From: Trichostrongylus colubriformis
Taxonomy: Eukaryota; Nematoda; Chromadorea; Rhabditida; Trichostrongylidae
DNA: 64,000 bases
NCBI GenBank assembly: GCA_963978905.1
Contig: OZ022257.1
Span: 18,371,664-18,435,663, forward strand
Reading direction: 5' to 3'
The number at the start of each line of letters is the position of its first letter. Within the stretch, counting starts at the first letter, position 1. Position numbers and translations under genes: made by a program. The notes below the pieces were generated by a model. That model was not told the origin of the DNA, did not search any database, and saw only the letters and a program-made list of their open reading frames with translations. This document shows, piece after piece, positions 3,962 to 51,285 of this stretch.

Positions 3962-5007
3962 TCAGGCGACGTGCGACGCGGCGATCACGATGGAGCGCGT
4001 TATCTTCCCCTACTAAATCCCGACATTCTTGAAATGCTCTGAACTTTACCTAGAGCCCATCTTTCAAACAGCTGTGAACTGTTTTCCTGATAATTCCCTT
4101 AGACCTATCTATTGGCCAATTGCTTGCTCCAATGGTTGCTTAGTTCTCGATATGGGTTCTTTGATGAGGATTTGATGAGCAAAATTTTGAAGTGTTTCAC
4201 GGAAATGGCCATAACTTCCTTCAAACTTAACCGTATGAGTTCGTTTTGGTGAAGCGGGGTCTAATAGGTTGTCGCTTTCGAATGACTACCTGAGCTATAC
4301 CATATCTTCAAAACGAAGGAAGTTATTTTGAGGGAAGGGTGATGAGGAAGGCTTTTTTTCGCCGAATTTGCGAGATCTTTCCACGAATCTTCCCAAAAAT
4401 CGATTCATTGTTACTGAAATTTTTCCAGTATGCATCCTTCGCTCTCGGAGGCCCAGTGGAGAGGCGAGAAGCGTCGGTCAGCTTCTCTGTGGGATGCGCC
4501 ATGCATCAGGATTTCATCCACATTCTCAATGAATACAAACGTTTTTCCGGTCCGCATAGTGGCCGCCAACACTAGATTACGTACTTGCGATCGTAGTAAG
4601 ATATGGAAGAAGTCCATATCAGCTAATTTTCCGCTTTGATCCCATTGTTTCTGGAGTGTCCATCCACGGTGGTACTCGCTGATAGATATCGCTTTCCACG
4701 GCTTATCGGTGAATTCCGGAGGTGTCTCTGTACGTAGTTTCGGTGTCAGCGGACCAACGAAAGAGTTATTGGTACTGGCCGGTTTCGTTGTGGATTGCGC
4801 CATGCATGAGGTTTCCATGGTCATTAAGTTAAACTGGTTTTGTGTTCGAACCCATTCAGTCAATTTAATCACTTCTCCCCTTACACTTTAGACCCTAAGC
4901 CTGAGAAATTCTGCTGATCACTGCCTACCTCAACAATTACGACCCCCCTCCTAGCGGACCAAATACGACCCCCCTGTTGAGGATTCCTCAACGGAGGCTT
5001 GACCCTG
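3962..5007 (-). repeat. B-family 1.05-kb repeat, copy 1
   Basis: Reverse-oriented copy of the repeats at 11146-12193 and 14823-15868. One end reads TCAGGCGACGTGCGACGCGG. The other ends in a small palindrome (TTGAGGATTCCTCAA) followed by CGGAGGCTTGACCCTG, with two G-rich 'ggggtcgta' blocks inside it. The three copies have constant ends but no shared target duplication. Copy 1 keeps the longest open frame of the family (4411-4872). Confidence 0.8.
4411..4872 (-). CDS. Residual ORF of the B repeat, unknown protein
   Basis: Open frame of 153 codons. The part conserved with the other copies starts at the ATG at about 4818 (METSCMAQSTT). It contains LTPK, RTETP, FTDKPWK and HRGWTLQKQWD and continues as TGKTFVFIENVDEILM and ADRRF to a stop at 4411. 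Copy 3 has the same N-terminal half but lost one base near 15261 and switches frame. Copy 2 keeps the later frame but meets an early stop. I recognise no domain. The pattern suits a decayed element gene or a captured host exon; function unknown. Confidence 0.4.
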   Translation of the reverse strand: MIKLTEWVRTQNQFNLMTMETSCMAQSTTKPASTNNSFVGPLTPKLRTETPPEFTDKPWKAISISEYHRGWTLQKQWDQSGKLADMDFFHILLRSQVRNLVLAATMRTGKTFVFIENVDEILMHGASHREADRRFSPLHWASESEGCILEKFQ

Positions 5008-14822: not shown

Positions 14823-15868
14823 CAGGGTCAAGCCTCCGTTGAGGAATCCTCAACAGGGGGGGTCGTATTTGGTCCCCTAGGAGGGGGGGTCGTGATTGTT
14901 GAGGTAGGCAGTGATCAGCAGAATTTCTCAGGCTCAGGGTCTAAAGTGTAATGGGAGAAGCGATTAAATTGACTAAATGGGTTCGAACCCAAAACTAGTT
15001 TAACTTAATCATCATGGAAACCTCATGCATGGCGCAATCCACAACGAAACAGGCTAGTACCAATAACTCTTTCGTTGGTCCGCTGACACCGAAACCACGC
15101 ACAGAGACACCTCGGGAATTCACCGATAAGCCGTGGAAAACAATATCTATCAACGGGTACCACCGTGGATGGACACTCCAGAAACAATGGGATGAAAGCG
15201 GAAAACTAGCTGATGTGGACTTCTTCCATATCTTACTACGTTCGCAAGTACGTAATCTAGTGTGGCGGCCACTATGCGGACTGGAAAAACGTTTGTATTC
15301 ATTGAGAATATGGATGAAATCCTCATGCATGGCGCATCCCACAGAAAAGCTGACCGACGCTTCTCGCCTTCCCACTAAGCCTCCGAGAGCGAAGGATGCA
15401 TACTGGAAAAATTTCAGCAACAATGAATCGATTTTGGGAAGATTCGTGGGAAGATCTCGCAAATTCGACGAAAAAAGGCTTCCTCATCACCCTTCCCTCA
15501 CAATAACTTTCTTCGTTTTGAAGATATGGTATAGCCCGGGTAGTCATTCGAAAGCGACAACCTAGTAGACCCTGCTTCACCAAAACGAACACATACGGTT
15601 AAGTTTGAAGGAAGTTATGGCCATTTCCGTGAAACACTTCGAAATTTTGCTCATCAAATCCTCATCAGGAAGCCCATATCGGGAACTAAGCAACCATCGG
15701 GCAAAGCAAGCGGTCTGTAGATAGGTCTTAGGGAGTTATTAGGAAAACAGGTCACAGCTGCTTGAAAGACAGGCTCTAGGTAAAGTTTGAAGTATTTCCA
15801 AAATGTCGGAATTTGATATGGGGAAGATACCGCGCTCCATCGTGATCGCCGCGTCGCACGTCGCCTGA
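14823..15868 (+). repeat. B-family 1.05-kb repeat, copy 3
   Basis: From CAGGGTCAAGCCTCCG to CGTCGCACGTCGCCTGA, 1,046 bp, the same length as copy 1. It carries an open frame from the ATG at 15014 to 15565. The first 80 or so residues match copy 1 (METSCMAQSTT, FTDKPWK, GWTLQKQWDE). A one-base loss near 15261 then shifts the frame, so the second half is an out-of-frame reading and not the ancestral protein. Confidence 0.82.
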
Positions 15869-23500: not shown

Positions 23501-26211
23501 CGCGGTGGTCGTAGATAGAGATCGACGTTACATGAAAACAACCTGTGGAGAAAGGGTCAAGTTTGGGATGGGTAGGCATGGGACGAGATTTAAGGAGCAC
23601 CCATGCATCAAGTTAAGCTGCCACGGCGAGAGCAGCAAACACTGAAATACTCTGTTCTCATGAAAAGAGCAATTCCGATCAACATACCGACGCACATGGT
23701 GTTTCGCGCACAGTAGGGTGCGCCAGCAAACTGGTCACTCATAGTAAAACACTCGGAAACCAAAACCTTTCATCTCCTATTTTTGTTTTCGACCTCTATT
23801 CAGCCAAAAATTTCATGTAGGCCGACATTCCAATAAACTACAGATGGAGATAGATGAAGCACGCCAGGGTTTATCTTCATGATTTGAGCCTTTTGCGGTA
23901 TTCCTCTGCAGCAGACTTCGATTCACTCAACTTTCTGCAAAGTGCACTCCAACGGACTTACACAAACCGCTAACTCTCCACAGCCATTCATTCCACATGG
24001 ATTACACGTCAGGTTTGCTGGGATCTTTCTCCATACTCCTTCTCAAGCAACAAACATTATATGGTGCATGACCTAGAAACATAAGAGAAGCGGCCAGAAG
24101 CCCTGACAACTTTTTTATGCACTGCACGGCTTCTGCTCCATATTCCTCTTCTCGCAATCCACAGCACCATTTTCATTACTCTCACTTTTTTATACTAACA
24201 TATTCCTGTGCTCGGTATTCAGGGTACAGTTGTTGTTAAACGCACTTTTTGCTGTGCTGAAGTTACCGCTACCAGATTCAATACCTGCCATTAGATGAGT
24301 ATCTCCGAAAGGCGTCGACAGTAAGCACGAGAAACTAAGTGAGATCTCACCAAAAGCAAATGTGGGAAGATGCAAAGTGACCTACAATACCCTTTTGATT
24401 ATCATACCTTGTATACTAAACTATGACAGAGAATGTCCTGATAAAAGTAAGTGGCGACACAGCTTACAGCAGCAGCGGATTCCGCGAAGGTGCGGGACTA
24501 ACGCTAGGCAGAAGAAGAAGGCTAAAAGTGCTCAGCCCAGAACAAGGAATGTAGTGTTCATCGGCGAACGATGGACGGGGTTATACAAGTAAAAGATTTC
24601 CACACTGAAAAAACACATCGTTTTCCTCATATTACCTCCATAGAATTTCCTTAGGGACATGTGGATTGAGCTTGACTTCCACCAGTAATTCGACGGTCGT
24701 GATCAAACATATTGTTATACCTTACGAATTCAATCCATTTGCGATCGTCACCAGTGAACCTCTTTTGTTTCTATCTGCGCAATGATTATAGCGCAGTTTC
24801 ATGTGCGTCGAGCTCATCCCTCTATTCTACTCACTGCCTCCCTATGGACCACGAGTGAGCCGACCTGCATCTCTGTCCAGGCAAGTCCAGGACGACCACA
24901 TGCGGTGTTGTTCGATTCTTCTTCCGAAATAAGCCTTTCATTTCTGTTCTCACGCTCCTAAAGACATTCATTCTGATTATTCCTAATCATTCGTTTTTGC
25001 CTTCTATCTATAGGAGTGTCGAACATTTTGAACATTTCGCGTATTTCTCTGTAGTATTGTATCTTTCATTAACTTTGCATCGCAGTGGATGCACCACAAA
25101 CCTTCAGAAATCGTACTTAATGTTGAATAACTGCAACAAATACGAATATTAATCAATAATGTATTAAAGGTAGGTGTCCACAGCCTTCCTTCATCGAATG
25201 GACGGCATTAAACTTTTTTACTTCATAAGTCATGAATTCAAGTTTTGCACCGAAACACAGACGTAAATTTTTTCCTAGAGTATGTCAGCATAGATGTGTG
25301 GAAGGAGCAAATAATAGCAGGAATGCCTTCGGAGTGGGATGGATTAGAAAGCTATTTGGTCTGACTTCTTTCCTTCTGAGCGACGCTAATGCTGGGGGAC
25401 AGGATTATTCCTTGCGAGATGAAAAGAACCTCAACCTTCCTGACACCATGGTCTGCCTACTTTGAACGCTCTCTCTTCTCAGTTAAATTGTACGTTGCAG
25501 CAAATCTCATGTACTTTATATAAGGGTCCTCCTTCTCAGCTGCTCAAGTGTCTAAACAGAGTAGAATCACTACAAATTTGCACCTTATATGTTTGCTTTT
25601 GAATAAGTGAACTGTGAATTGTACCATCCACTCATGTACGCCGGAAATTTAATGCCCGAGTCAGATTGCGCTGTGCAGGAAGAACACTGCGGCAATGTTA
25701 ATCCCCTAGTGAATGGCTGCCTTCACCCAGAAATCTAAATCCCCCAAAGTCTGTACTGCAACTAGTGTAGATCCTCAGAAAGAACTTATCACATCCTTCT
25801 AGACCATGTGCATTTCAATGAGCAATCGTGGCCAAGATGCCAGATATGGAACGAAAAATCGTTTCCTAGCAATTAGTTTTATGAGGCTTTATGATTGATT
25901 TAATTGCTGCTCTGTGAGATATACACAGATAACCCGTTCGCAAGCGCGTGCGGTCATGTTGTGTCATACCTAGAACGCCTCAATTACATTCCATCGGTCC
26001 ATAAGCTCCCGACACTTCACATCTACTGCTGTAAAAATTTTTGGAGGAATTTCGAGGTTCCGCTTCTTGTGAGATAGCATGGATTTCATCTTCACCACAC
26101 TGATTAGCTGTCTAGCTTGCTTACTCACCGTTCGTCCTAGCTATAATATTATTTTGCGAAAAGCTCATGAGCCCATTTTCTTTATGAGCATCGCATGGGA
26201 CATTCCAAGGG
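23501..26211. other. Unassigned sequence
   Basis: No gene, TIR pair or tandem array supported. This is the region 3' of the receptor gene. Confidence 0.35.
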
Positions 26212-26273
26212 GTGATCGTACTCTCCTCCGTTGCGTGGCCGTACGGCCACGCAACGGAGGAGAGTACGATCAC
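26212..26273. repeat. Perfect 62-bp palindrome
   Basis: Two 31-base arms with no spacer, centred between 26242 and 26243. The centre reads GTGGCCGTACGGCCAC and the outer bases GTGATCGTA/TACGATCAC. It lies about 110 bp beyond the stop of the minus-strand receptor gene. Confidence 0.95.
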
Positions 26274-26380
26274 TCTTTCTTATGGACCAACCCAATAGAA
26301 GGTGGGGAATGTTTCAGGAGTAGTAAGGTTTGCGAGACAGCTAATAATTAAACAGCTTCTTATCCCTTTTAGAAAATGAG

Positions 26381-29300
26381 CTATGTAGAAACAGGAACGT
26401 ACCTGTTAAATATCATGTACGGCAAGATGAGAACGTCATAGTAAATGAGCGTCGAGTAACTTTCCAGGAAATGTTGCCAGGACCCCGGCGGGGCTGAGCT
26501 TACTCCAAATTCCCAATAGACGAAGAAGAGCAATTCAAATACCGACACAACTGCGGCCTGCAGAGCTGGAGTCTTAGGACATATCAATGTATGAGCTGAA
26601 TATATGTATGTATGTAAACGAATGTAAGTGCTCGCAGACGCTCATATCGTATAACCGATGTTTCATGTGATAGTCACACGGTCAAAATTAGTATTACCGT
26701 GCGTGTTATATACATTTATTCATTATAGTTGTGGCTGTCTTGAGTTGGATGTGATGTGAATCATTACAACAGGTTTTCGCTGAGCGAGCTGATGGTACCG
26801 CATTGGTTAAAAGCTCAAGACGATTGCCACGTACCATTTGTAAAATAAGCTCAGTGAGTTGGTGACAAGCGTCTCTAATGAACCGTTGGTCAGAAGCATC
26901 TCTAGGGAGCAGCAGACCAGCTCGGTATAGCCCATGATGTTGTGCTGCTGCTAACAAGGGAAGGATTCTAGGTCGAAGTGGCCATTCGGAATGGGATATA
27001 TATTGTCTGACGTACTTTCGGACGCTGATCTCGAACCTGCATTCCAAATTTGCTGTCCGATTCTCTGAGCAGAGTTATGGAGGTTTTTTTTTGAAAAAAC
27101 AATGCTATTATATGGTAGGTTTGGAAGCCCGTAGCACGCGAGCCAGACGTTCTCGCGCAAAACTAGTGCGATTTTCGTGTTCGGGGGACCAAACTGCACT
27201 ATGGAACATGTTTTTAGCCAATTCGAGGCCTATAGGGTAGGCCAAGAGTTTTTCCGAAATTAGGTCAAATTCTCGGTAAGCCAAGAATTTTTCCGAAATT
27301 CGGTCAAATTCTCGAACTGGCTAAAAACATGTTCCATAGGGCAGTTTGGTCCCCTGAACAGAAAAATCGCACTAGTTTTGCGCGAGAACGTCTGGCTCGC
27401 GTGCTACGGGCTTCAAAACCTACCATATAATAGCATTGTTTTTTCAAAAAAACCTCCATGACTCCGCTCAGAGAATCGGACAGCAAATTCGGAATGCAGG
27501 TTCGAGATCAGCGTCCGAAAATACGTCAGACAGTATGTATCCCATTCCGAATGGCTACTTCGACCTAGAATCCTCCCCTTGTAAGCAACGTCATAGCTTG
27601 AAAAACTACCGATGGATACACTGTGTCTAGAAAGTAAGCTGATAAATCCGATTATCGTGCGCTTTGCCTCCAAACATGCATATGACCACGGCGCACGCAA
27701 CGGTTTTCATTCAAACTCTTTTATGATTCTGTGTGAAGAGGTACTCGATTTACGCACCCTTGAGGCATGAAAGATACACGCCCTGAATAAATATTACAGC
27801 TGCGGGTAGAGTGGAGAGCTAGAAACGCATATTATACCTTGAAATTCAGTAGTACACTAAGGACGCAATTTCAGAAACGAAGCCGCGCAGAGTAGGAGCA
27901 ACCCTCGAAAATTTTTAGAGAAAACCCGTATTTTAGTTTATTCCGGGAAAGTAAGTCTCTCAAGAGGTGCTTCAACTTCTCCGGCGAGCTCTGTGACGGA
28001 GTACCAAGTAGATTCATGACCTGTACGGTCATCATTATTTCACTATTACTTCTAAAGGTTAGTGATCCTTTGATGTATAGTGTGGTAAACATAATAACAT
28101 AGGCAGCCACATTAAAGATGCCGGTGACGTAGTTGGATATTCCGTTTAACCTGAAAAATGCGTAGTAGTTATCAGTGCTGATTATCTGGCCATAAGCCTA
28201 AATCACATCAGGTGGGCTAGGCTTTCTATCTCTCCAAAGCCAGCAACTAGCTCATCATATAGCTTTCATCAGTTTTCATCATTATAACTTAGAAATAACT
28301 TAGAAAATGGGTATGCAGTGAAAGTTATGTATGAGCCACTAAATGCACTCTTGTTGGTCAAAGGCGGCCTACCGGTCAAGCGCCGTGCACATTAAGGCGC
28401 GGATACACATGGTCTGGCGGGAATGCCATACCACAAGAAAGAGTCTTTTCTAGGGTTTAGTAGGATTCGATTCAACGAGGCACCTGGCCCACTGCCCTTT
28501 TCCGGGAACCCACTTTTCCCCAATTTTTATTGTGTATTAATACTTCGTTGTGCGTTGATCGTTTTAATTGTGCGGACCTAGAAATAAGGATTTGATTAAA
28601 TCGTGTGTTCCTTTGTATTGGATTACGTTCTCGCATACCGAGATCGATTTCAACGGGACAAGTATCCCACACTGTAATATTTCTCAGTGGGCTTACTGCT
28701 GTAATCAATACCGACAACTGGAGACTCTAAACGTACCACGAAGTTGCTGGCTTGAGGGGACCATCCCCATAGTAAAAGAAGAAATGAGCAGCGCAAAATT
28801 CCACAGAAGCCAACGGTGACAAGGTAGTCGCTATGTAAGCACCATAGAAAGTAAATATAAATGCAATACACATCTGTAAGTACCAAGTATCCGAAGCTCA
28901 TTGTGACAAGCCTTCAGGACGAAGTCTCGAGCTTTTCTCACTCTCTTTTGAAGGTTCGACAGAATATGAACTAATTCATCTCTACGACAATTCGGTTTGG
29001 TACTAAGGGCAGTTAAAAGGTGTCATTCTCTCTCTTGAAGATTCGATAGAATATGAACTACTTCATCTCTACGACAACACCGCGGTTTGGTACTAAGGGT
29101 AGTGAACAGGTGGGGGAAGTAATCGTCATTACGGAAGCTCTAAGAAATAGAAACTGTGTGAACTTCCGACCAAATTTTAGGCGAGGAGCTCCGGAGGATT
29201 ATCCCAGGCAGGCCCGATTCGATTGACGTGTTATCCTAAAAAACAAGCATGGTGTGAAGTTACTGTAAGCACCCCAATGACAGACCACGCATCTTTCGTT

Positions 29301-31006
29301 CGCTAGTAGTTTTGCACATGTCCTTGACCCATGATCTGATGACTCAGCGCTATTATACTGAGCAAGCATCATTCGTCATCAACATTGGATTCGACGGGTA
29401 TTCGGCATCAAATGATGGACATTTTTCTTTCACTTTTCACTTCCAGCAACACCACTCAAAAGCCTGAATGTACGTAATTCTTTTTGTTTCTTTTCGAACT
29501 TTGTGAACAAGGATTATTCGCGAGCAGCGCACAACTACCAATTTGGCGTCCTCTCGATGAATGAAGAAGCATAAAGGAATAACAAGAGAATTTATATTTG
29601 AACCTTACCCTCTCAATTCTTTCAGTCAAAATGAATTGCGCGTTCACCGGAAGCAGAGTATAGAAAAGGCGATGAATAGTGAGGCACAAATCGGCTAACT
29701 GGAAGGCAAGGGAACTACCCTGATAGTTGGCTCCTGTTATCTGAGTTACTCTGAATTACATTGAAAAGAAGATGTTCATAGACGGTAATGACGGCAATCA
29801 TATTCCTACTCTAGAGAGCGCAGGTGAGTCAAATAGGATTTGTCCATGAATATACGACAACAGAAACCCGATGTAGTTCAGAATGCTGAACAATGCCATA
29901 ATTCGCAGAAGATGAAACGCGAAGTCCGACTTCCAGCCTTTCATCTTCTGACAGATCTGAAAAACTTCACCACGCTTACGAAATCATTTCGTTCGAGGTC
30001 GATGCTTCTGAATAATCAGTACAAGATATCTTACGGAAATAACACATCTCCGGCCACTAGTCTTCGGCTTGCTGCTCGAGCAACGCTTGGTTGCATTCAC
30101 ACTCCGCGGCGGGTCGTAATGTATGCGGCTATGTAGGCTTCGCTTCTAGTCTGTTAACACGACACGCTCGGTGGTGTTGCAGGGTAGGCCAGCTTATTTA
30201 TTGCGCAGCGTGAGTTGCAGGCGCGTTAACAGATCGCAGAATTGTGTGATAAGGTGCGAATGCAACCGTCATAAAATCCATAACACGCTTTGATAAAAGT
30301 CAGCTTTTGAGCCCTTTATTTTCGCAAGTTTATTGTGTCTATTCCATGGCAGTGACTAAATCGCTCACAGTAAACCATGGCACTATTTACCCTCAACAGC
30401 ACCACCATCACGATCTTGATGGGTTGGAAGAGGTGATTTTCTGCAGAAGAATCCAGTTTGGTCAGAAACTTGTACTAGGTGGCGATTCGACCCGTAGGAC
30501 ATGAATATGACACTCACTCAGCGCAGAACAGCTCAGCCCTTGCGCCAAGTAGGGTGAATTTTTAAATTGCCATGGCTCGTGCCCAGACAAATTCATGGCG
30601 AAAGTGTGATATTTCTACTCAGAGGGTCAAGCTACATCTATATATGGATAAATTTTAAGCGACTGTGATGATTCACTCCTTCCTGGCTCCAGGCGGTGTC
30701 GCGCTCATTGAATGTTATATTCGTGTTCAACAGGTAGAACTCCTCTTGGGTGCAAGTTCTCAACCGAATCAGAATGTTCACCAGGAACCAACTCTTTCGT
30801 CCCATCGAGAGTTGATAAAGTGGGGTTGCTCGGGTGAATACACTGTTCCTAAATCATGTAGCCGAAGATAGAAAAGAGCGTACCAGAGCAAATATCATTT
30901 GAAGGGTAATGGAAGCAGTTGTAATTGCCGAGCATGATGCCACGTACAGTATACGGGTGGAACCGACTAATGGAAAATTCGGAGTCAAGCAGTCCATGCC
31001 AGACAT
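26381..31006 (-). CDS. Nematode serpentine chemoreceptor-type GPCR, six exons
   Basis: Exons on the minus strand: 31006-30884, 29956-29856, 29750-29609, 28873-28737, 28150-28021 and 26557-26381. Every junction has GT/AG ends and matching phase, giving 269 residues with no internal stop. Hydrophobic segments fall where seven membrane helices should: TM1 about 16-41, TM2 about 52-75 (FHLLRIMALFSILNYI), TM3 about 87-111 with LTIHRLF in place of DRY, TM4 about 123-144, TM5 about 174-194 (IFNVAAYVIMFTTLYI), TM6 about 212-230, and TM7 about 247-263 ending LPYMIFNR. This order is typical of nematode Sr-class receptors (Srx/Srt/Srv groups); family unassigned. Start chosen at the ATG at 31006, just after a TAATTTAG that could accept a spliced leader. 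The last exon has a donor-like GTACGT at 26402, so the C-terminus is uncertain. Likely expressed in sensory neurons (family knowledge). Confidence 0.68.
26945..27600. mobile_element. Palindromic element (family F1), intact copy in intron 5
   Basis: About 650 bp, almost entirely an inverted repeat centred near 27250. The left arm begins GGATTCTAGGTCGAAGTGGC and runs through GACGCTGATCTCGAACCTGC, 'cacgcgagccagacgttctc' and 'aactagtgcgatttt' to CTAAAAACATG; the right arm mirrors it. Related to the split copy at 20786-23395. Strong hairpin potential, no coding capacity. It sits in the 1.46-kb fifth intron of the receptor gene. Confidence 0.9.
28937..29112. repeat. Tandem duplication, unit about 88 bp, in intron 3
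   Basis: Two units share 'gaatatgaact.attcatctc' (one variable base) and 'cggtttggtactaaggg'. Within an intron of the receptor gene. Confidence 0.85.
30379..30849. mobile_element. Foldback element with imperfect 8-bp TSD, in intron 1
   Basis: Starts GGCACTATTTACC, followed by 'gaagaggtgatttt', a 'cgattcgacccgtagg' block and its degraded inverse 'attcgtgttcaacaggta'. Same family as 45387-45819. Flanks read TAAACCAT (30371-30378) and TAAATCAT (30850-30857), a 7/8 match, which supports an 8-bp target duplication. It ends 33 bp from the donor of the receptor gene's first exon. Confidence 0.78.
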
Positions 31007-32211
31007 TTCACCAGTGATAAAGGTTCCTAAATTACAGACCGTTAACCAATAAAAAGCACTCAGGTGCGCATGAAACACGTTAAAACAGTAGAAACATTCG
31101 AGAGAAGCATTTTCAAAAGCTCTAATTCTCTGCTGCTGTGAGGCACAAAATCTAAACAGCTTACAGAGATCGTTTAGCGATTCTATGGTAACTTTGATTA
31201 TGTTCACATCAAAAGACGAGAAACAGTCATGGCTCGGAGCAATCCTCACGGGAAGTTATCCGCGAATGGTAGAAAAGTAGCATTAGCCTTGCTGGTGTGA
31301 TGCTAAGACTTTGACACTACATCAGTAGGGGGTAATATAATAAGTTTATGGCAATATAGGTTGTATTTTGTTACCTTCAACAATTCACTTATGGTCATGT
31401 ACTTTGCCACCGATTTTCCATATAAATAAGGGGTGAAACTGAAATAGCTGTCTCTTTCTCAACTCAGCTAATTGAAAGGCTCGTATTTTTCAGATTCTTT
31501 TAAATTTTTCCCTCCCTTTCGAAGAGTCACTTTGAAAGCTTTGCATAGAATAAGCAAGAGAAATCTGGTAAGAAGTATATGAAACTCGGAATGGTGACAA
31601 AAAAGTTTAGGAACTTCAGTTAGGCAGTCCACAGCTTAAGGGCATGGGTAACAAGGAGAAAAGCTTTGCTCTTCGTGCATCGTTTTTATTAGGCACGTGA
31701 GTAAGTCTTGCGACACACACGACTTCTTTTTTCGGCGCATGACTGCATAATCTCTCAGATATATAGACGAAGTATTGCCTGCTACCACTTGCCTCCAATA
31801 AATAGGTAGCTGATCAATGCCTCTATTCAAAAGTCCACAAGCTACGAGAGGGGCACATGGCCATAAGAATCAGTTGCAGTTAAAGAATCGAGCTCACCAC
31901 TTCCTAAGTAACATTCAAAACACTGATTAAGTGGTGTTTGGAACAACTAGAAGATAGATTTATATAGATTAGATTTAGAGAAGATTTATAAGAAAATAGA
32001 TAGAATGAAGCGGTACTACAGAACTCAGCTCCTTCTTATTTCTCGCCCTATCCTTGCATACAGGCGTGAGTGGAACTGTTGGAAGACGAATCAGCTGCTT
32101 TCTGGAAAATGGTGAAAGCAAATGTGGGCTAGTTCCCAGATAAGATTGTCACTAACTCTAGCCGTTACTACTTTCTCTGCTATGCCAACGTAAAGTGGAA
32201 CTTTTATTGAC
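31007..32211. other. Unassigned sequence upstream of the receptor gene
   Basis: Would include the receptor promoter. The open frame of exon 1 continues upstream to 31249, so an earlier start cannot be excluded. No clear promoter element recognised. Confidence 0.35.
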
Positions 32212-47420: not shown

Positions 47421-48180
47421 AGAATACACTGAACACTGGTAGATAGAAGTCCGATAAGCAGCGAACAACAAATGTCGTGCCACGAGTTGATAATGACAGC
47501 TTGGATTAGGTCTCTCTCGTCTTTCAATGTTGGAAGTACGAAAAATTATAGGTCGAAGCATCCAGTTTTTCTTAAAGGATACGTAGAACTTCGTCAGTAG
47601 CTAACATAAAGAGTAACACCAACACAAAGGTTGAAGATTGAAATTGATTTTAGACCAAATACAAATGCAAAAACTTAAGCGTTGGTAGGGAACAAACCCA
47701 CGTTCTACCACTTTCAAAGCGAATGCACTACAATGAAGCCGTATAGGCTGTTATTGTCAAAGTTGAAAACCTCTCCTGCTTGGATCAATGCGCGATCTTT
47801 GAAGCCCAAAATCAGGGAATTCTGTTGGCACTGATGAAGTTGGATCTAGGAATCGTTCCATGGGCCACGCTCTCCATCATGCACCATTTCCCGCAATTCC
47901 AACTGAAGCTCAAAGGTTCACAATAAATTTCGTTGGTCACCACGTTCAACAGTGATTTATGAGAGTAACGTGTTGAAAAACACATATGAGTATAAGAAAA
48001 AGATCAGGTGGACCTATTGAACTCCCAAAATACTGTCCTTCGATATTTGGCCTGAACGAGATCGGAGCCAGGAAGTGGTTACTAGAGTATTCTTTCCCGG
48101 CAGCTTTGTCCTGTAAATGAAGATTTCGTCTTTTTCATTGCGATGGATAACACGCCTGGTGGCGATGTCCGTTCCTCCCT
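47421..48180. other. Region between LINEs, with a tRNA-like remnant
   Basis: Mostly unassigned. It may include the 5' untranslated part of the RTE element that follows. The tRNA-like segment is listed separately. Confidence 0.4.
47681..47740 (-). pseudogene. tRNA-like SINE-type remnant
   Basis: Minus strand: GGCTTCATTGTAGTGCATTC as an A-box-like part and GGGTTTGTTCCC as a B-box-like part, followed by 'aagtttttgcatttgtat'. It shares its 3' flank with the tRNA-like segment at 21540-21606. It does not fold as a complete tRNA. Confidence 0.4.
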
Positions 48181-51100
48181 GTGGTGCCACTGGAAACTGC
48201 TCTTCCCACCGGAAGAGCCGAGCTGAACACGGACAACACACGATTTCCGGCGACAGGCCCAGGCGACAGGCCGGCTGAAGGACAAAATGTTGCATCAACA
48301 TGGACGATGTCTCCAAGAGTTTCGAGAAGAGCTACGGCGTTCCCGGGAAGCGACGCTCGACAGCGGGACCCGGCTGTCGTGTCAAATCAGTTAGGGGTGT
48401 CGACGCAAGGGCGGCGTCGATTAAACAAGCAAGCCCACCACACCCGCTTCGCGACGCTCAACATCGGCAGCATGACGGGAAGAGGCGCTGAGGTTGCGGA
48501 TGCTCTCAAGCGGCGAAGAATTGATGTGTGTGCAGTGCAGGAGACAAGATGGAGCGGATGCAAGTCGCGTGACATCGGCGAAGGCTTCAAGATCATCTAC
48601 TTCGGAAGCACACGCACGCGCAATGGCGTTGGTGTTATCGTCTCCGAGAGGTACCGAGATGCCGTCTCTGAAGTCTGCCGATTCGATGACCGCCTTATGA
48701 AGATCGTTGTTATCGTCAATAACACTCGTCTGCACATCTTCTCTGCCTATGCCCCACAGTCTGGATGTAGCGACGTCATTAAAGACGCCTTCTGGGAGCT
48801 GCTCGATGCGAAGACGAACGACGTTCCGGAGGAGGAGACGCTCATTGTGTTGGGGGACCTGAATGGACACGTCGGTTCTACCAGTGATGGCCATCGAGCA
48901 CACGGAGGATACGGATACGGAATACGAAACGAGGATGGCGACCGCATTCTTGAATACGCGGAAGCAAACGAACTCATTATCGTCAACACGTTTTTCATGA
49001 AACGGTCAACCCACCTCGCAACGTACTATAGTGGAGGCTGTTCGACGCAGATCGATTTCGTCCTTATCCGTCGCCGACACGCTCGTTTGGTCCACGACGC
49101 GAAGGTCCTACCCCATGAAACTGTTGCGACTCAGCATAGACCACTCGTCGTCGACATGGCCGTTGCCCCTCCAAGGGCAGGACGCGTGGAGAGGACAGGA
49201 GCTGCAAGAGTGAAGTGGTGGAAGTGGACAGAGAAGAAGGATTATGTCATCCCCCTTATCCACCTCCCACCAGTCACAAACGATATCGACGAGACGTGGA
49301 AGCTGGCCACCGCGGCAAGTAGCAACGTTATATGTGGTGAACTTGGGACAACAAAGCCGGGTAGACGCTTCATAGACAAGAAAACGTGGATATGGACCGA
49401 CGACGTAAAGAAGGCGGTACGAGAGAAGAAGAGACTGTACCATGCTTACCTTGTCACACGAAATCCGGCTGATCTCGCAAAGTACCACGAGGCAAGGAGA
49501 GTCGCGAAGAAAACAGTGGCAGCAGCGAAGGCCGACAAGGAGAAAGAGCTGTACGACAAATTGAACACATGGCAGGGCGAGAGAGAGGTCTACCGTCTCA
49601 TCCGCGCAAGACACCAGAAAACGGAGGACATTGAAAAGTTTTTCGGTATCAATGACACGAACGGCACTCTGCTTACGGACAAAAGAAGTGTCCTTGAGAG
49701 ATGGCGAGCATATTTCGAGGGCATCTCAACGCAAGAGTTCCCGCATCCACCGCTACCGACCATTGAACCTACCCACGGGCCCGTGCAGAGGATCACATCA
49801 TCAGAGGTGGCGACAGCACTGAAGGCTATGAAAGCTGGGAAGGCGAGCGGCCCCGACGACATTGCCGCGGAGGTGTGGAAGGAGAGCAGCTGGAACCCTG
49901 CTCCGTGGCTCGCGGACTTCTTCAACAAAATCGTGGAGCAGAACCGTGCGCCGGCCGAGTGGAGCAACAGCGTCACGATACCGATATGGAAGAAGAAAGG
50001 AAGTCCGGCCGACTGCAGTAACTACCGCCCAATCCGACTACTCGCCCACACGATGAAAATTTTCGAGCGAATTGTAGACGCACGGATTCGAGGTATAATC
50101 AACATCAGCATCAACCAGTGCGGTTTCGTCAAGAACTGCGGCACAGTTGATGCCATCCATGCAGTGCGGCTCCTCATGGAAAAGCATCGTGAGAAAGGGA
50201 AACCTCTTCACTTGGCTTTCCTCGATCTCGAGAAAGCGTTCGATCGAGTCCCCCACGAACTCATCTGGTTTTCACTGAGAATACATGGAGTTCCAGAGCA
50301 TATCGTCCGATGGGTTCAGCTCCTCTACGTCAACACGAAAAGTAGAGTTCGTACAGCTGCCGGGACATCGAAAGATTTCTGCATCAGCGTTGGTGTTCAC
50401 CAAGGCTCCGCCCTGTCCCCTCTTCTCTTCAAAATCGTGATGGACGCGATCACCCGTGACCTGCAGCAACCCATCCCGTGGACGCTGCTTTACGCAGACG
50501 ATGTGGTGTTGGCAGCAGAGACGAAGATGGAGCTGCAGAGGCAAGTTCAGAGATGGAAAGACCGCTTGGCACGATACGGTCTCCGACTTAACATCAAGAA
50601 GACGGAGTACCTGACGACGGATACTGCAGAAGCTGGCTCCATCCAAATCAGTGGCGAGATGATGCCTCGCGCCAGCCACTTCAAATACCTGGGCTCAACA
50701 GTGAGCGAAGACGGAAACCTTCGGCACGAGGCCACTTCACGCATCAGCGCCGCTTGGAAAAAGTGGAAAACGACAACGGGAGTCCCATGCGACCGTAAGA
50801 TCGGCGACAGGCTTAAGTCAAAAGTGTATCGCACAATCGTAAGACCTGTCGCCCTCTACGCCTCGGAAACCTGGCCGGCAACGAAAGAGACGGAGCGAAA
50901 GCTCGGAACTATGGAAACGAAAATGCTGCGCTGGATCTCCGGTCTCACGAGACTTGACAAAGTGACCAACGTGGACATCCGAAGGCGATATGGCATCGCT
51001 CCCATCGACGAGAAGATGCGGGAGAGAAGACTTCGATGGTTCGGCCACGTACTTAGAGCTAATGTTGAGAGCGTCGCCCGTATTGGATACGAAACGGAGG

Positions 51101-51285
51101 TGATAGGCAAGAGGCCGAGAGGAAGACCGAGACAGCGATGAGCCGATACCCTTCATCAAGACATGAAGAAACGCGGCCTTCATCCAGGTGACGCAACAAA
51201 TCGAGAGGAATGGAGACGGAAGTCCAGATATGCGGACCCGTGCAACAAAGCGGGATCGACGCTAAAGAAGAAGTAAGGATAACAC
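48181..51285 (+). mobile_element. RTE-type non-LTR retrotransposon, nearly complete
   Basis: The whole visible element is a single long coding frame with endonuclease and reverse transcriptase and a very short 3' tail, typical of RTE LINEs. GC content is clearly higher than the flanks, as for a young insertion. The exact 5' end and target duplication could not be fixed. Confidence 0.85.
48307..51141 (+). CDS. RTE LINE polyprotein (endonuclease + reverse transcriptase), one nonsense codon near the end
   Basis: Start taken at the first in-frame ATG (48307); the frame is open back to 48181 without ATG. 944 residues. The apurinic-like endonuclease spans about 48-290: FATLNIG (48), QETRW (78-82), GDLNGH (183-188), and a QHRP block replacing SDHR. 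The reverse transcriptase spans about 500-830: SNYRPI (571), FLDLEKAFDRVPH (638), GVHQGSALSP (696) and YADD (729-732). The C-terminal block has YLGSTVSEDG and RRLRWFGHVLR and ends RPRGRPRQR. The TGA at 51139-51141 stands where a TGG would keep the frame. After it the same frame stays open to a TAA at 51274-51276 with typical RTE C-terminal residues (DMKKRGLHPG, REEWRR). All catalytic motifs are intact. Confidence 0.93.
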   Translation: MSPRVSRRATAFPGSDARQRDPAVVSNQLGVSTQGRRRLNKQAHHTRFATLNIGSMTGRGAEVADALKRRRIDVCAVQETRWSGCKSRDIGEGFKIIYFGSTRTRNGVGVIVSERYRDAVSEVCRFDDRLMKIVVIVNNTRLHIFSAYAPQSGCSDVIKDAFWELLDAKTNDVPEEETLIVLGDLNGHVGSTSDGHRAHGGYGYGIRNEDGDRILEYAEANELIIVNTFFMKRSTHLATYYSGGCSTQIDFVLIRRRHARLVHDAKVLPHETVATQHRPLVVDMAVAPPRAGRVERTGAARVKWWKWTEKKDYVIPLIHLPPVTNDIDETWKLATAASSNVICGELGTTKPGRRFIDKKTWIWTDDVKKAVREKKRLYHAYLVTRNPADLAKYHEARRVAKKTVAAAKADKEKELYDKLNTWQGEREVYRLIRARHQKTEDIEKFFGINDTNGTLLTDKRSVLERWRAYFEGISTQEFPHPPLPTIEPTHGPVQRITSSEVATALKAMKAGKASGPDDIAAEVWKESSWNPAPWLADFFNKIVEQNRAPAEWSNSVTIPIWKKKGSPADCSNYRPIRLLAHTMKIFERIVDARIRGIINISINQCGFVKNCGTVDAIHAVRLLMEKHREKGKPLHLAFLDLEKAFDRVPHELIWFSLRIHGVPEHIVRWVQLLYVNTKSRVRTAAGTSKDFCISVGVHQGSALSPLLFKIVMDAITRDLQQPIPWTLLYADDVVLAAETKMELQRQVQRWKDRLARYGLRLNIKKTEYLTTDTAEAGSIQISGEMMPRASHFKYLGSTVSEDGNLRHEATSRISAAWKKWKTTTGVPCDRKIGDRLKSKVYRTIVRPVALYASETWPATKETERKLGTMETKMLRWISGLTRLDKVTNVDIRRRYGIAPIDEKMRERRLRWFGHVLRANVESVARIGYETEVIGKRPRGRPRQR

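What the first reader, a model, noticed from the sequence alone, without database searches (positions are those of the whole stretch)
26381..31006. A complete, phase-consistent seven-TM receptor gene hidden among repeats
Six short exons on the minus strand join with matching phases at every boundary and give seven hydrophobic segments in the right order, ending in LPYMIFNR. No single frame shows the gene, since the longest exon is only about 177 bp. TM3 has LTIHR where classical receptors have DRY, and the protein, about 269 residues, is short for a nematode chemoreceptor. The family may be divergent or lineage-specific.
Basis: partly seen in the sequence, partly recalled or inferred. Interest (0 to 1): 0.8.

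Follow-up and report, generated by a model that had tools for sequence, protein, structure and literature searches.

The report
Seven-exon worm chemoreceptor-type receptor gene
This stretch of a parasitic roundworm's DNA holds what looks like a working gene for a seven-helix sensor protein of the kind worms are thought to use for smell and taste, from a small unnamed group so far found only in parasitic worms of one branch.

Summary
Homologues show seven coding exons, not six: 31006-30884, 29956-29810, 29740-29609, 28873-28737, 28150-28021, 26557-26403 and 24957-24831 (minus strand, 316 aa). "LPYMIFNR" ends exon 6, which splices over 1445 bp to exon 7, outside the given coordinates, so the protein is not short. 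Closest protein: Haemonchus contortus, 66% identical, E 8.5e-106. The same genome, almost certainly Trichostrongylus colubriformis, has 16 paralogous loci on another contig. Window-branch dN/dS is about 0.16-0.26, so a pseudogene is unlikely. A simple hydropathy scan clearly shows five of seven helices (TM3 and TM7 weak); a predicted homologue structure has seven, and all 50 listed PDB matches are G-protein-coupled receptors. The window protein has no Pfam match up to E 10; 40 of 44 relatives were scanned and none is seen to reach a cut-off; Srt is nearest. All relatives with a named source are strongylids. DRY is replaced by a conserved H-R. Best reading: a chemoreceptor-type GPCR of Srg-superfamily affinity in an unnamed strongylid group. 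Ligand, expression and coupling are inferred.

The parts
30884..31006 (-). exon 1 (123 bp): start ATG, N-terminus with conserved Cys6, TM1; donor GTACGC
   Evidence: tblastn of homologues that include this exon, 43-63% identity; model
29810..29956 (-). exon 2 (147 bp): first intracellular loop KGWKS and TM2; acceptor TTTTTCAG, donor GTAGGA
29609..29740 (-). exon 3 (132 bp): TM3 with CLTIHRLFYTLLP (H-R at the DRY place); 69-bp intron before it
28737..28873 (-). exon 4 (137 bp): TM4 and extracellular loop 2 with Cys161 (30 of 30)
28021..28150 (-). exon 5 (130 bp): TM5 and third intracellular loop, ends MTVQ
26403..26557 (-). exon 6 (155 bp): TM6 and TM7, DVLILPYMIFN; donor AACAG|GTACGT
   Evidence: C-terminal tblastn E 2.4e-6 with P0001; model
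31027..31028 (-). candidate acceptor (TAATTTAG) ending 20 nt upstream of the ATG, possibly for spliced-leader trans-splicing or a 5' UTR intron; a similar element is visible in several but not all paralogues
   Evidence: function inferred
26949..27587 (.). nested inverted repeat inside intron 5 (arms of 149 nt at 92% and 142 nt at 96%), foldback/MITE-like; not part of the gene product
26196..26289 (.). palindrome (2 x 47 nt, 85%) inside intron 6

Best explanation
Window 31006-24831 (minus strand) is an intact seven-exon gene for a 316-residue seven-transmembrane G-protein-coupled receptor. It belongs to a strongylid family of chemoreceptor type whose nearest named relatives are in the Srg superfamily (Srt nearest). 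It is one of about 17 loci of the family in this genome: 16 lie on another contig and this one lies alone on its own, so it was probably transposed out of the cluster. Most likely mechanism: the receptor sits in the membrane of a sensory neuron, binds a small environmental or host-derived ligand in its outer helical bundle under a loop-2 lid that may be tied to the N-terminus by a Cys6-Cys161 disulfide, and activates a G protein through its inner face, where His-Arg stands in for DRY. Shown: gene structure by homology, homology, purifying selection. Predicted: fold (on a homologue). Inferred: sensory expression, ligand, disulfide, coupling and the transposition.
For: Joined six-exon protein versus database: 16 hits at E<=1, best E 8.5e-106, 66% identity. 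Every exon is matched by homologues, including exon 7. Own genome: 109 exon matches (a lower bound), 7 of them this gene on C3 and 97 in C5:4.30-5.95 Mb. Fifteen modelled paralogues, 58-69% identical, share the intron positions and phases (phases were imposed in the modelling, and exon 7 was found in 13 of the 15). Independent of my modelling, the annotated T. colubriformis proteins GCK32_014567 and GCK32_014568 agree with my L054 and L051 models at 100 of 100 and 132 of 133 residues across junctions 5 and 6. Window-branch dN/dS 0.16-0.26 in eight triplets, highest upper bootstrap bound 0.49; 0 of 2000 neutral simulations at d=0.4 stayed stop-free. AlphaFold2 of homologue P0001: pLDDT 83.8, pTM 0.80, seven TM helices, helix 8, ECL2 hairpin. 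Foldseek: 663 PDB matches at E<=0.001, all 50 listed rows are GPCR entries. Colinear but sub-threshold Srt matches in relatives. Tree: Trichostrongylus genes one clade (99/97), window gene sister to L045 (95/81). Clustering on one chromosome with single genes transposed elsewhere is described for Caenorhabditis chemoreceptors (PMC2576165, passages seen).
Against: No transcript, expression, ligand or coupling data. Hydropathy of the window protein is weak for TM3 (1.14) and TM7 (1.03). The structure is of a homologue whose record lacks the N-terminus. The window protein itself has no Pfam match up to E 10. It departs from residues kept in at least 90% of relatives at three places (Y56H, Q59R, S94A). 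No AATAAA-like signal within 400 nt of the stop, as also in 5 of the 14 other loci scanned there.
Confidence: 0.8

Rival explanations
1. It is simply a divergent member of the named Srt (or Srg) family, and the strongylid group is not a separate family.
For: Srt is the most frequent Pfam match: 8 of 31 members at E<=10, best E 1.9e-4, colinear over most of the profile (P0003 16-311 of 313). UniRef names include 'Serpentine Receptor, class T' once and 'Serpentine receptor class gamma' for several.
Against: No member is seen to reach the Srt cut-off (best 21.0 against 23 bits). The Srt profile finds 49 exon matches in this genome on C1 and C3 but none in the window or the C5 cluster. No conserved Trp in TM3 and no conserved Cys in extracellular domain 2 (TM limits assigned by me), against the Srt signature in PMC2576165.
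Confidence: 0.3
2. A pseudogene or decaying copy stranded away from the cluster.
For: Lone copy on another contig, repeats in its introns, three departures from conserved residues, weak hydropathy of TM3 and TM7; decayed copies do exist in the family (L052, L055).
Against: Seven open exons with GT-AG introns; window-branch dN/dS well below 1; neutral simulation 0 of 2000 stop-free at d=0.4.
Confidence: 0.06
3. A GPCR with a non-chemosensory role (peptide, pheromone or reproductive signalling).
For: The fold search matches peptide and amine receptors, but any class-A-like model would.
Against: Species-specific expansions and clustering are usual for chemoreceptors and unusual for conserved transmitter receptors (a contrast with peptide receptors is drawn for the Srw family in PMC2576165).
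Confidence: 0.13
4. A chance assembly of open frames.
For: None found.
Against: Homologue E-values and the matching exon set.
Confidence: 0.01

Closest known systems
Unnamed H. contortus proteins A0A7I4YR39 (P0001), V3C99_014894 (P0002), A0A7I5EC43 (P0003); A. duodenale Aduo_014321 (P0004)
   Same: 54-67% identical in the alignment with the 316-aa model, colinear from the first exon (where present) to the C-terminal tail
   Different: Not one-to-one orthologues: the Trichostrongylus genes form their own clade
T. colubriformis annotated fragments GCK32_014567 (P0025) and GCK32_014568 (P0022)
   Same: Same family and, it appears, same species; they agree with the L054 model at 100 of 100 and the L051 model at 132 of 133 residues
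   Different: They are other cluster genes, annotated as pieces of 100 and 133 aa
Srt family (PF10321), Srg superfamily
   Same: Best and most frequent of the chemoreceptor profiles below cut-off, colinear, 7TM
   Different: Below cut-off; Trp in TM3 and the ED1-ED2 cysteine pair missing
Srx/Srxa families (PF10328, PF03383)
   Same: A residue followed by Arg at the inner end of TM3
   Different: H-R instead of N-R and only one conserved Cys in extracellular domain 3; Srx profile misses window and cluster
GPCR entries of the PDB (class A by recall of the receptor names)
   Same: Seven helices, helix 8, ECL2 hairpin; Foldseek E down to 8.7e-7, TM-score 0.51-0.65 by query length in the 50 listed
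   Different: 10-17% identity; no DRY

Membership tests
Seven-transmembrane GPCR | seven helices in GPCR fold | tested here: met
   AlphaFold2 of homologue P0001 and Foldseek; for the window protein only by 66% identity over 95%; its own hydropathy is weak for TM3 and TM7
Seven-transmembrane GPCR | couples to a G protein on ligand binding | not testable with these tools
   needs assay
Class A / rhodopsin-like | DRY-type motif at the end of TM3 | tested here: not met
   H113-R114 in 31 of 31 rows with a residue there; Arg kept, Asp/Glu replaced by His
Srt (PF10321) | profile score at or above the cut-off | tested here: not met
   window 0 matches; best relative 21.0 against 23 bits
Srt (PF10321) | nearly invariant Trp in TM3 and in TM7 (PMC2576165) | tested here: not met
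   no conserved Trp in TM3; Trp250 (29 of 30) lies at the outer start of TM7 and may or may not correspond
Srt (PF10321) | cysteine pair joining extracellular domains 1 and 2 | tested here: not met
   conserved outer cysteines are Cys6 (domain 1) and Cys161 (domain 3)
Srg (PF02118) | profile cut-off; Trp near the inner end of TM4 | tested here: not met
   best relative 12.9 against 22 bits; no conserved Trp in TM4
Srx (PF10328) | NR in TM3, cysteine pair within extracellular domain 3, profile cut-off | tested here: not met
   HR; one Cys; best relative E 0.011; no window or cluster match among 55 in the own-genome search
Sru | cysteine pair joining extracellular domains 3 and 4 | tested here: not met
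   no conserved Cys in domain 4
Srv | Pfam profile match (no motif given in PMC2576165) | tested here: not met
   no PF10323 match for the window nor for the 31 members
Srg superfamily | significant sequence similarity to other members by pairwise blastp (the paper's criterion) | tested here: inconclusive
   blastp against Caenorhabditis sets not run; only sub-threshold profile matches; no Caenorhabditis protein among the hits of three searches with limited prefilters
Nematode chemoreceptor (functional sense) | expression in chemosensory neurons, response to chemicals | not testable with these tools
   no expression data

The most novel reading that the evidence does not exclude
A chemoreceptor family restricted to strongylid parasites and absent from the named nematode catalogue. 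It would be defined by an H-R in TM3, an invariant GW in the first inner loop, the motif DVLxLPYxxxN in TM7, and an N-terminus-to-loop-2 cysteine pair (extracellular domains 1 and 3) that the 2008 Caenorhabditis survey, in the passages I saw, lists for no family. It would be expanded separately in Trichostrongylus and Haemonchus and missed by Pfam-based surveys, so counts of chemoreceptors in these worms made that way would be too low.
Probability: 0.4. Interest if true: 0.6.

Novelty: new member of a known kind. Interest (0 to 1): 0.4.

Why it matters
It shows that multi-exon receptor genes in strongylid genomes can be missed or annotated as fragments (P0022 and P0025 are pieces of genes of this family), and that an expanded chemoreceptor-type family there scores below the Pfam cut-offs. 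If the family is strongylid-only, it is a defined set of candidates for parasite-specific sensing of host or pasture cues, testable by expression mapping. As a gene it is ordinary in kind: C. elegans and C. briggsae each have over 1,200 chemoreceptors (PMC7302863, passage seen).

Tried and rejected
My first six-exon model (289 aa) joined exon 5 to exon 6 in a wrong frame-compatible way (MTVQVMNLLALQAAVV); the homologue alignment showed an 8-residue insertion there and I replaced it. A second attempt had exon 6 one base too long, corrected.

Considered and rejected: Srx (own-genome Srx profile search, 55 exon matches, none in window or C5 cluster); plain Srt (kept as a rival); pseudogene; a one-to-one orthologue of P0001 (tree). 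The paralogue modelling script failed once because of an unsupported tblastn option and was rerun; the exon 4 of L043/L044 was then set by hand. L052 was left out of tree and alignments as degenerate; L053 lacks exon 7, and L055 lacks exon 7 and part of exon 5, in the models; L045 and L046 have an in-frame stop in the exon 7 reading, marked X in the tree and left out as a codon in the dN/dS work, though codons after it were kept; the exon 7 reading of L042 is weak. Exon phases were imposed in that modelling and donor ends counted for the two loci without exon 7, so the 15 of 15 agreement is not fully independent; the unspliced tblastn matches and the two annotated T. colubriformis fragments agree with it. 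The two profile searches scored only 7996 candidates each, so absence of Caenorhabditis is not proof. The tables for whole alignments give E-values per family, not bits; that no member reaches a cut-off rests on those E-values and on the bits. Five paper searches (5, 12 of 34, 13, 2 and 4 papers listed) listed no paper whose title or abstract start describes this family; beyond listings I saw only passages of PMC2576165 and of PMC7302863. A search for the more distant branch of the family in this genome (P0033) did not complete.
Full report
What was checked. The minus strand of 26381-31006 does hold six exons that join in phase. Searching the joined protein gave 16 proteins at E<=1, the best an H. 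contortus protein at E 8.5e-106 and 66% identity over 95%. A chance assembly is excluded.

Correction of the gene. Aligned homologues run on past IFN with a conserved tail (NKTVKTEMKNLFRK...). tblastn of that tail found its counterpart at 24959-24852, preceded by an acceptor and in the phase left by the exon 6 donor. The final model has exons of 123, 147, 132, 137, 130, 155 and 127 bp, introns of 927, 69, 735, 586, 1463 and 1445 bp, and 316 residues. All six introns are GT-AG.

Which organism. The window lies in a 331-Mb genome without a name. The annotated T. colubriformis protein GCK32_014567 (100 aa) is contained letter for letter in my spliced model of locus L054, and GCK32_014568 (133 aa) agrees with the L051 model at 132 of 133 residues. 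Both cross the exon 5/6 and 6/7 junctions. The genome is thus almost certainly T. colubriformis or a very close relative. None of the nine proteins of other sources compared comes near this.

Family in the genome. The corrected protein gave 109 exon matches, a lower bound: 7 are this gene on C3, 97 fall in C5:4.30-5.95 Mb and 5 elsewhere. The C5 matches make 16 loci and an isolated exon-6 fragment (C5:4.306 Mb). Of the 16 loci, 14 give exons 1-6 open with splice signals (one with a GC donor; one with its exon 4 set by hand); L052 is degenerate and L055 has lost part of exon 5. Identity to the window protein is 58-69% for the 15 modelled. In a tree of 33 proteins the Trichostrongylus genes form one clade (bootstrap 99, SH-aLRT 97), most Haemonchus genes another (8 rows, 87/86; P0005 unplaced), and the window gene pairs with L045 (95/81). 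Each lineage expanded on its own, and the window gene probably moved out of the C5 cluster (inference).

Selection. Pairwise Nei-Gojobori dN/dS against the 15 paralogues is 0.23-0.37. Three-point estimates for the lineage leading to the window gene give 0.16-0.26 in eight triplets, with bootstrap upper bounds 0.26-0.49. Random mutation of the coding sequence left 7, 1, 0 and 0 of 2000 copies stop-free at d = 0.2, 0.3, 0.4 and 0.5. The gene has been kept.

Structure. AlphaFold2 on homologue P0001 with 22 aligned sequences gave pLDDT 83.8 and pTM 0.80, seven long helices, a short helix after TM3 and another after TM7, and a two-strand hairpin in extracellular loop 2. Foldseek found 663 PDB chains at E<=0.001; the 50 listed are all GPCR entries, TM-score 0.51-0.65 by query length. 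The window protein was not folded.

Which family. The window protein has no Pfam match up to E 10. Of the 44 relatives found in three searches, none carries a precomputed Pfam domain, and of the 40 scanned none is seen to reach a cut-off (P0020, P0021, P0024 and P0025 were not scanned). The most frequent sub-threshold match is Srt, in 8 of 31 members, best E 1.9e-4, 21.0 bits against 23. As a control, the Srt profile finds 49 exon matches in this genome, up to 80.6 bits, but none here or in the C5 cluster. Thomas and Robertson (PMC2576165; passages seen) give diagnostic features: Srt has Trp in TM3 and TM7 and a cysteine pair between extracellular domains 1 and 2; Srg has Trp in inner TM4; Srx has NR in TM3 and a pair within domain 3; Sru has a pair between domains 3 and 4. 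Here, with TM limits that I assigned, TM3 and TM4 have no conserved Trp, TM3 has HR (31 of 31 rows with a residue), and the conserved outer cysteines are Cys6 (18 of 19) in domain 1 and Cys161 (30 of 30) in domain 3; the three divergent relatives aligned lack both. A domain 1-3 pair is not given for any family in the passages I saw. That these two cysteines bond is inferred.

Distribution. That these genera are all strongylids is general knowledge. The search needs shared five-residue words and scored at most 7996 candidates in the two profile runs, so strongylid restriction is suggested, not shown. UniRef already names several members 'Serpentine receptor class gamma' and one 'class T'. No database protein identical to the window gene was found, but a record under 0.55 or over 1.75 times the query's length would not have been a candidate.

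How it most likely works. A ligand from the surroundings or the host enters the outer helical bundle; the receptor changes shape and activates a G protein through the inner ends of TM3, TM5, TM6 and helix 8. Only the fold (predicted, on a homologue) and the conservation of inner-face residues (HR, Asn215, Glu217, Thr221, Gln223) and of DVLxLPYxxxN in TM7 bear on this; ligand, neuron and G protein are unknown.

Verdict.

Noticed in passing
window 48151-51141 (+): A 996-aa open frame with an endonuclease domain (PF03372, E 1.3e-7) and a reverse transcriptase domain (PF00078, E 5.4e-38): a non-LTR (LINE-type) retrotransposon in an island of higher G+C (0.51-0.54).
   Followed up: partly
window 26949-27587: Nested inverted repeat inside intron 5, arms of 149 and 142 nt, with a 39-bp tandem duplication (27236-27313) at its centre: a foldback or MITE-like element.
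   Followed up: partly
window 26196-26289: Palindrome of two 47-nt arms without spacer inside intron 6.
   Followed up: no
P0007, P0008, P0011, P0029 (H. contortus V3C99_013975, 013972, 015181, 013981): Three annotated proteins (P0007, P0008, P0011) lack the stretch encoded by exon 3 (TM3 and the HR motif) and P0029 lacks roughly the same; the exon's length keeps the frame when skipped, and genes 013975 and 015181 also have a form with it (P0012, P0013). Either exon skipping or an annotation habit.
   Followed up: no
upstream of the ATG, window 31007-31030 and the same place in several paralogues (e.g. L042, L045, L046): A shared element resembling TGTGATTYAG shortly before the start codon, a candidate trans-splice acceptor.
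   Followed up: no
L057 (C7:47.16 Mb) and L058 (C5:30.02 Mb): Distant relatives of the family elsewhere in the genome; the L058 exons give a weak Srt match (E 0.018) and may bridge to the named families.
   Followed up: partly
window 4411-4887 (-) and 14999-15565 (+): Two open frames with closely similar protein sequence over much of their length (MAQSTTK.ASTNNSFVGPLTPK...), a dispersed repeat with no Pfam match.
   Followed up: no
window 1-64000: No Rfam family reaches its gathering score anywhere in the window.
   Followed up: yes
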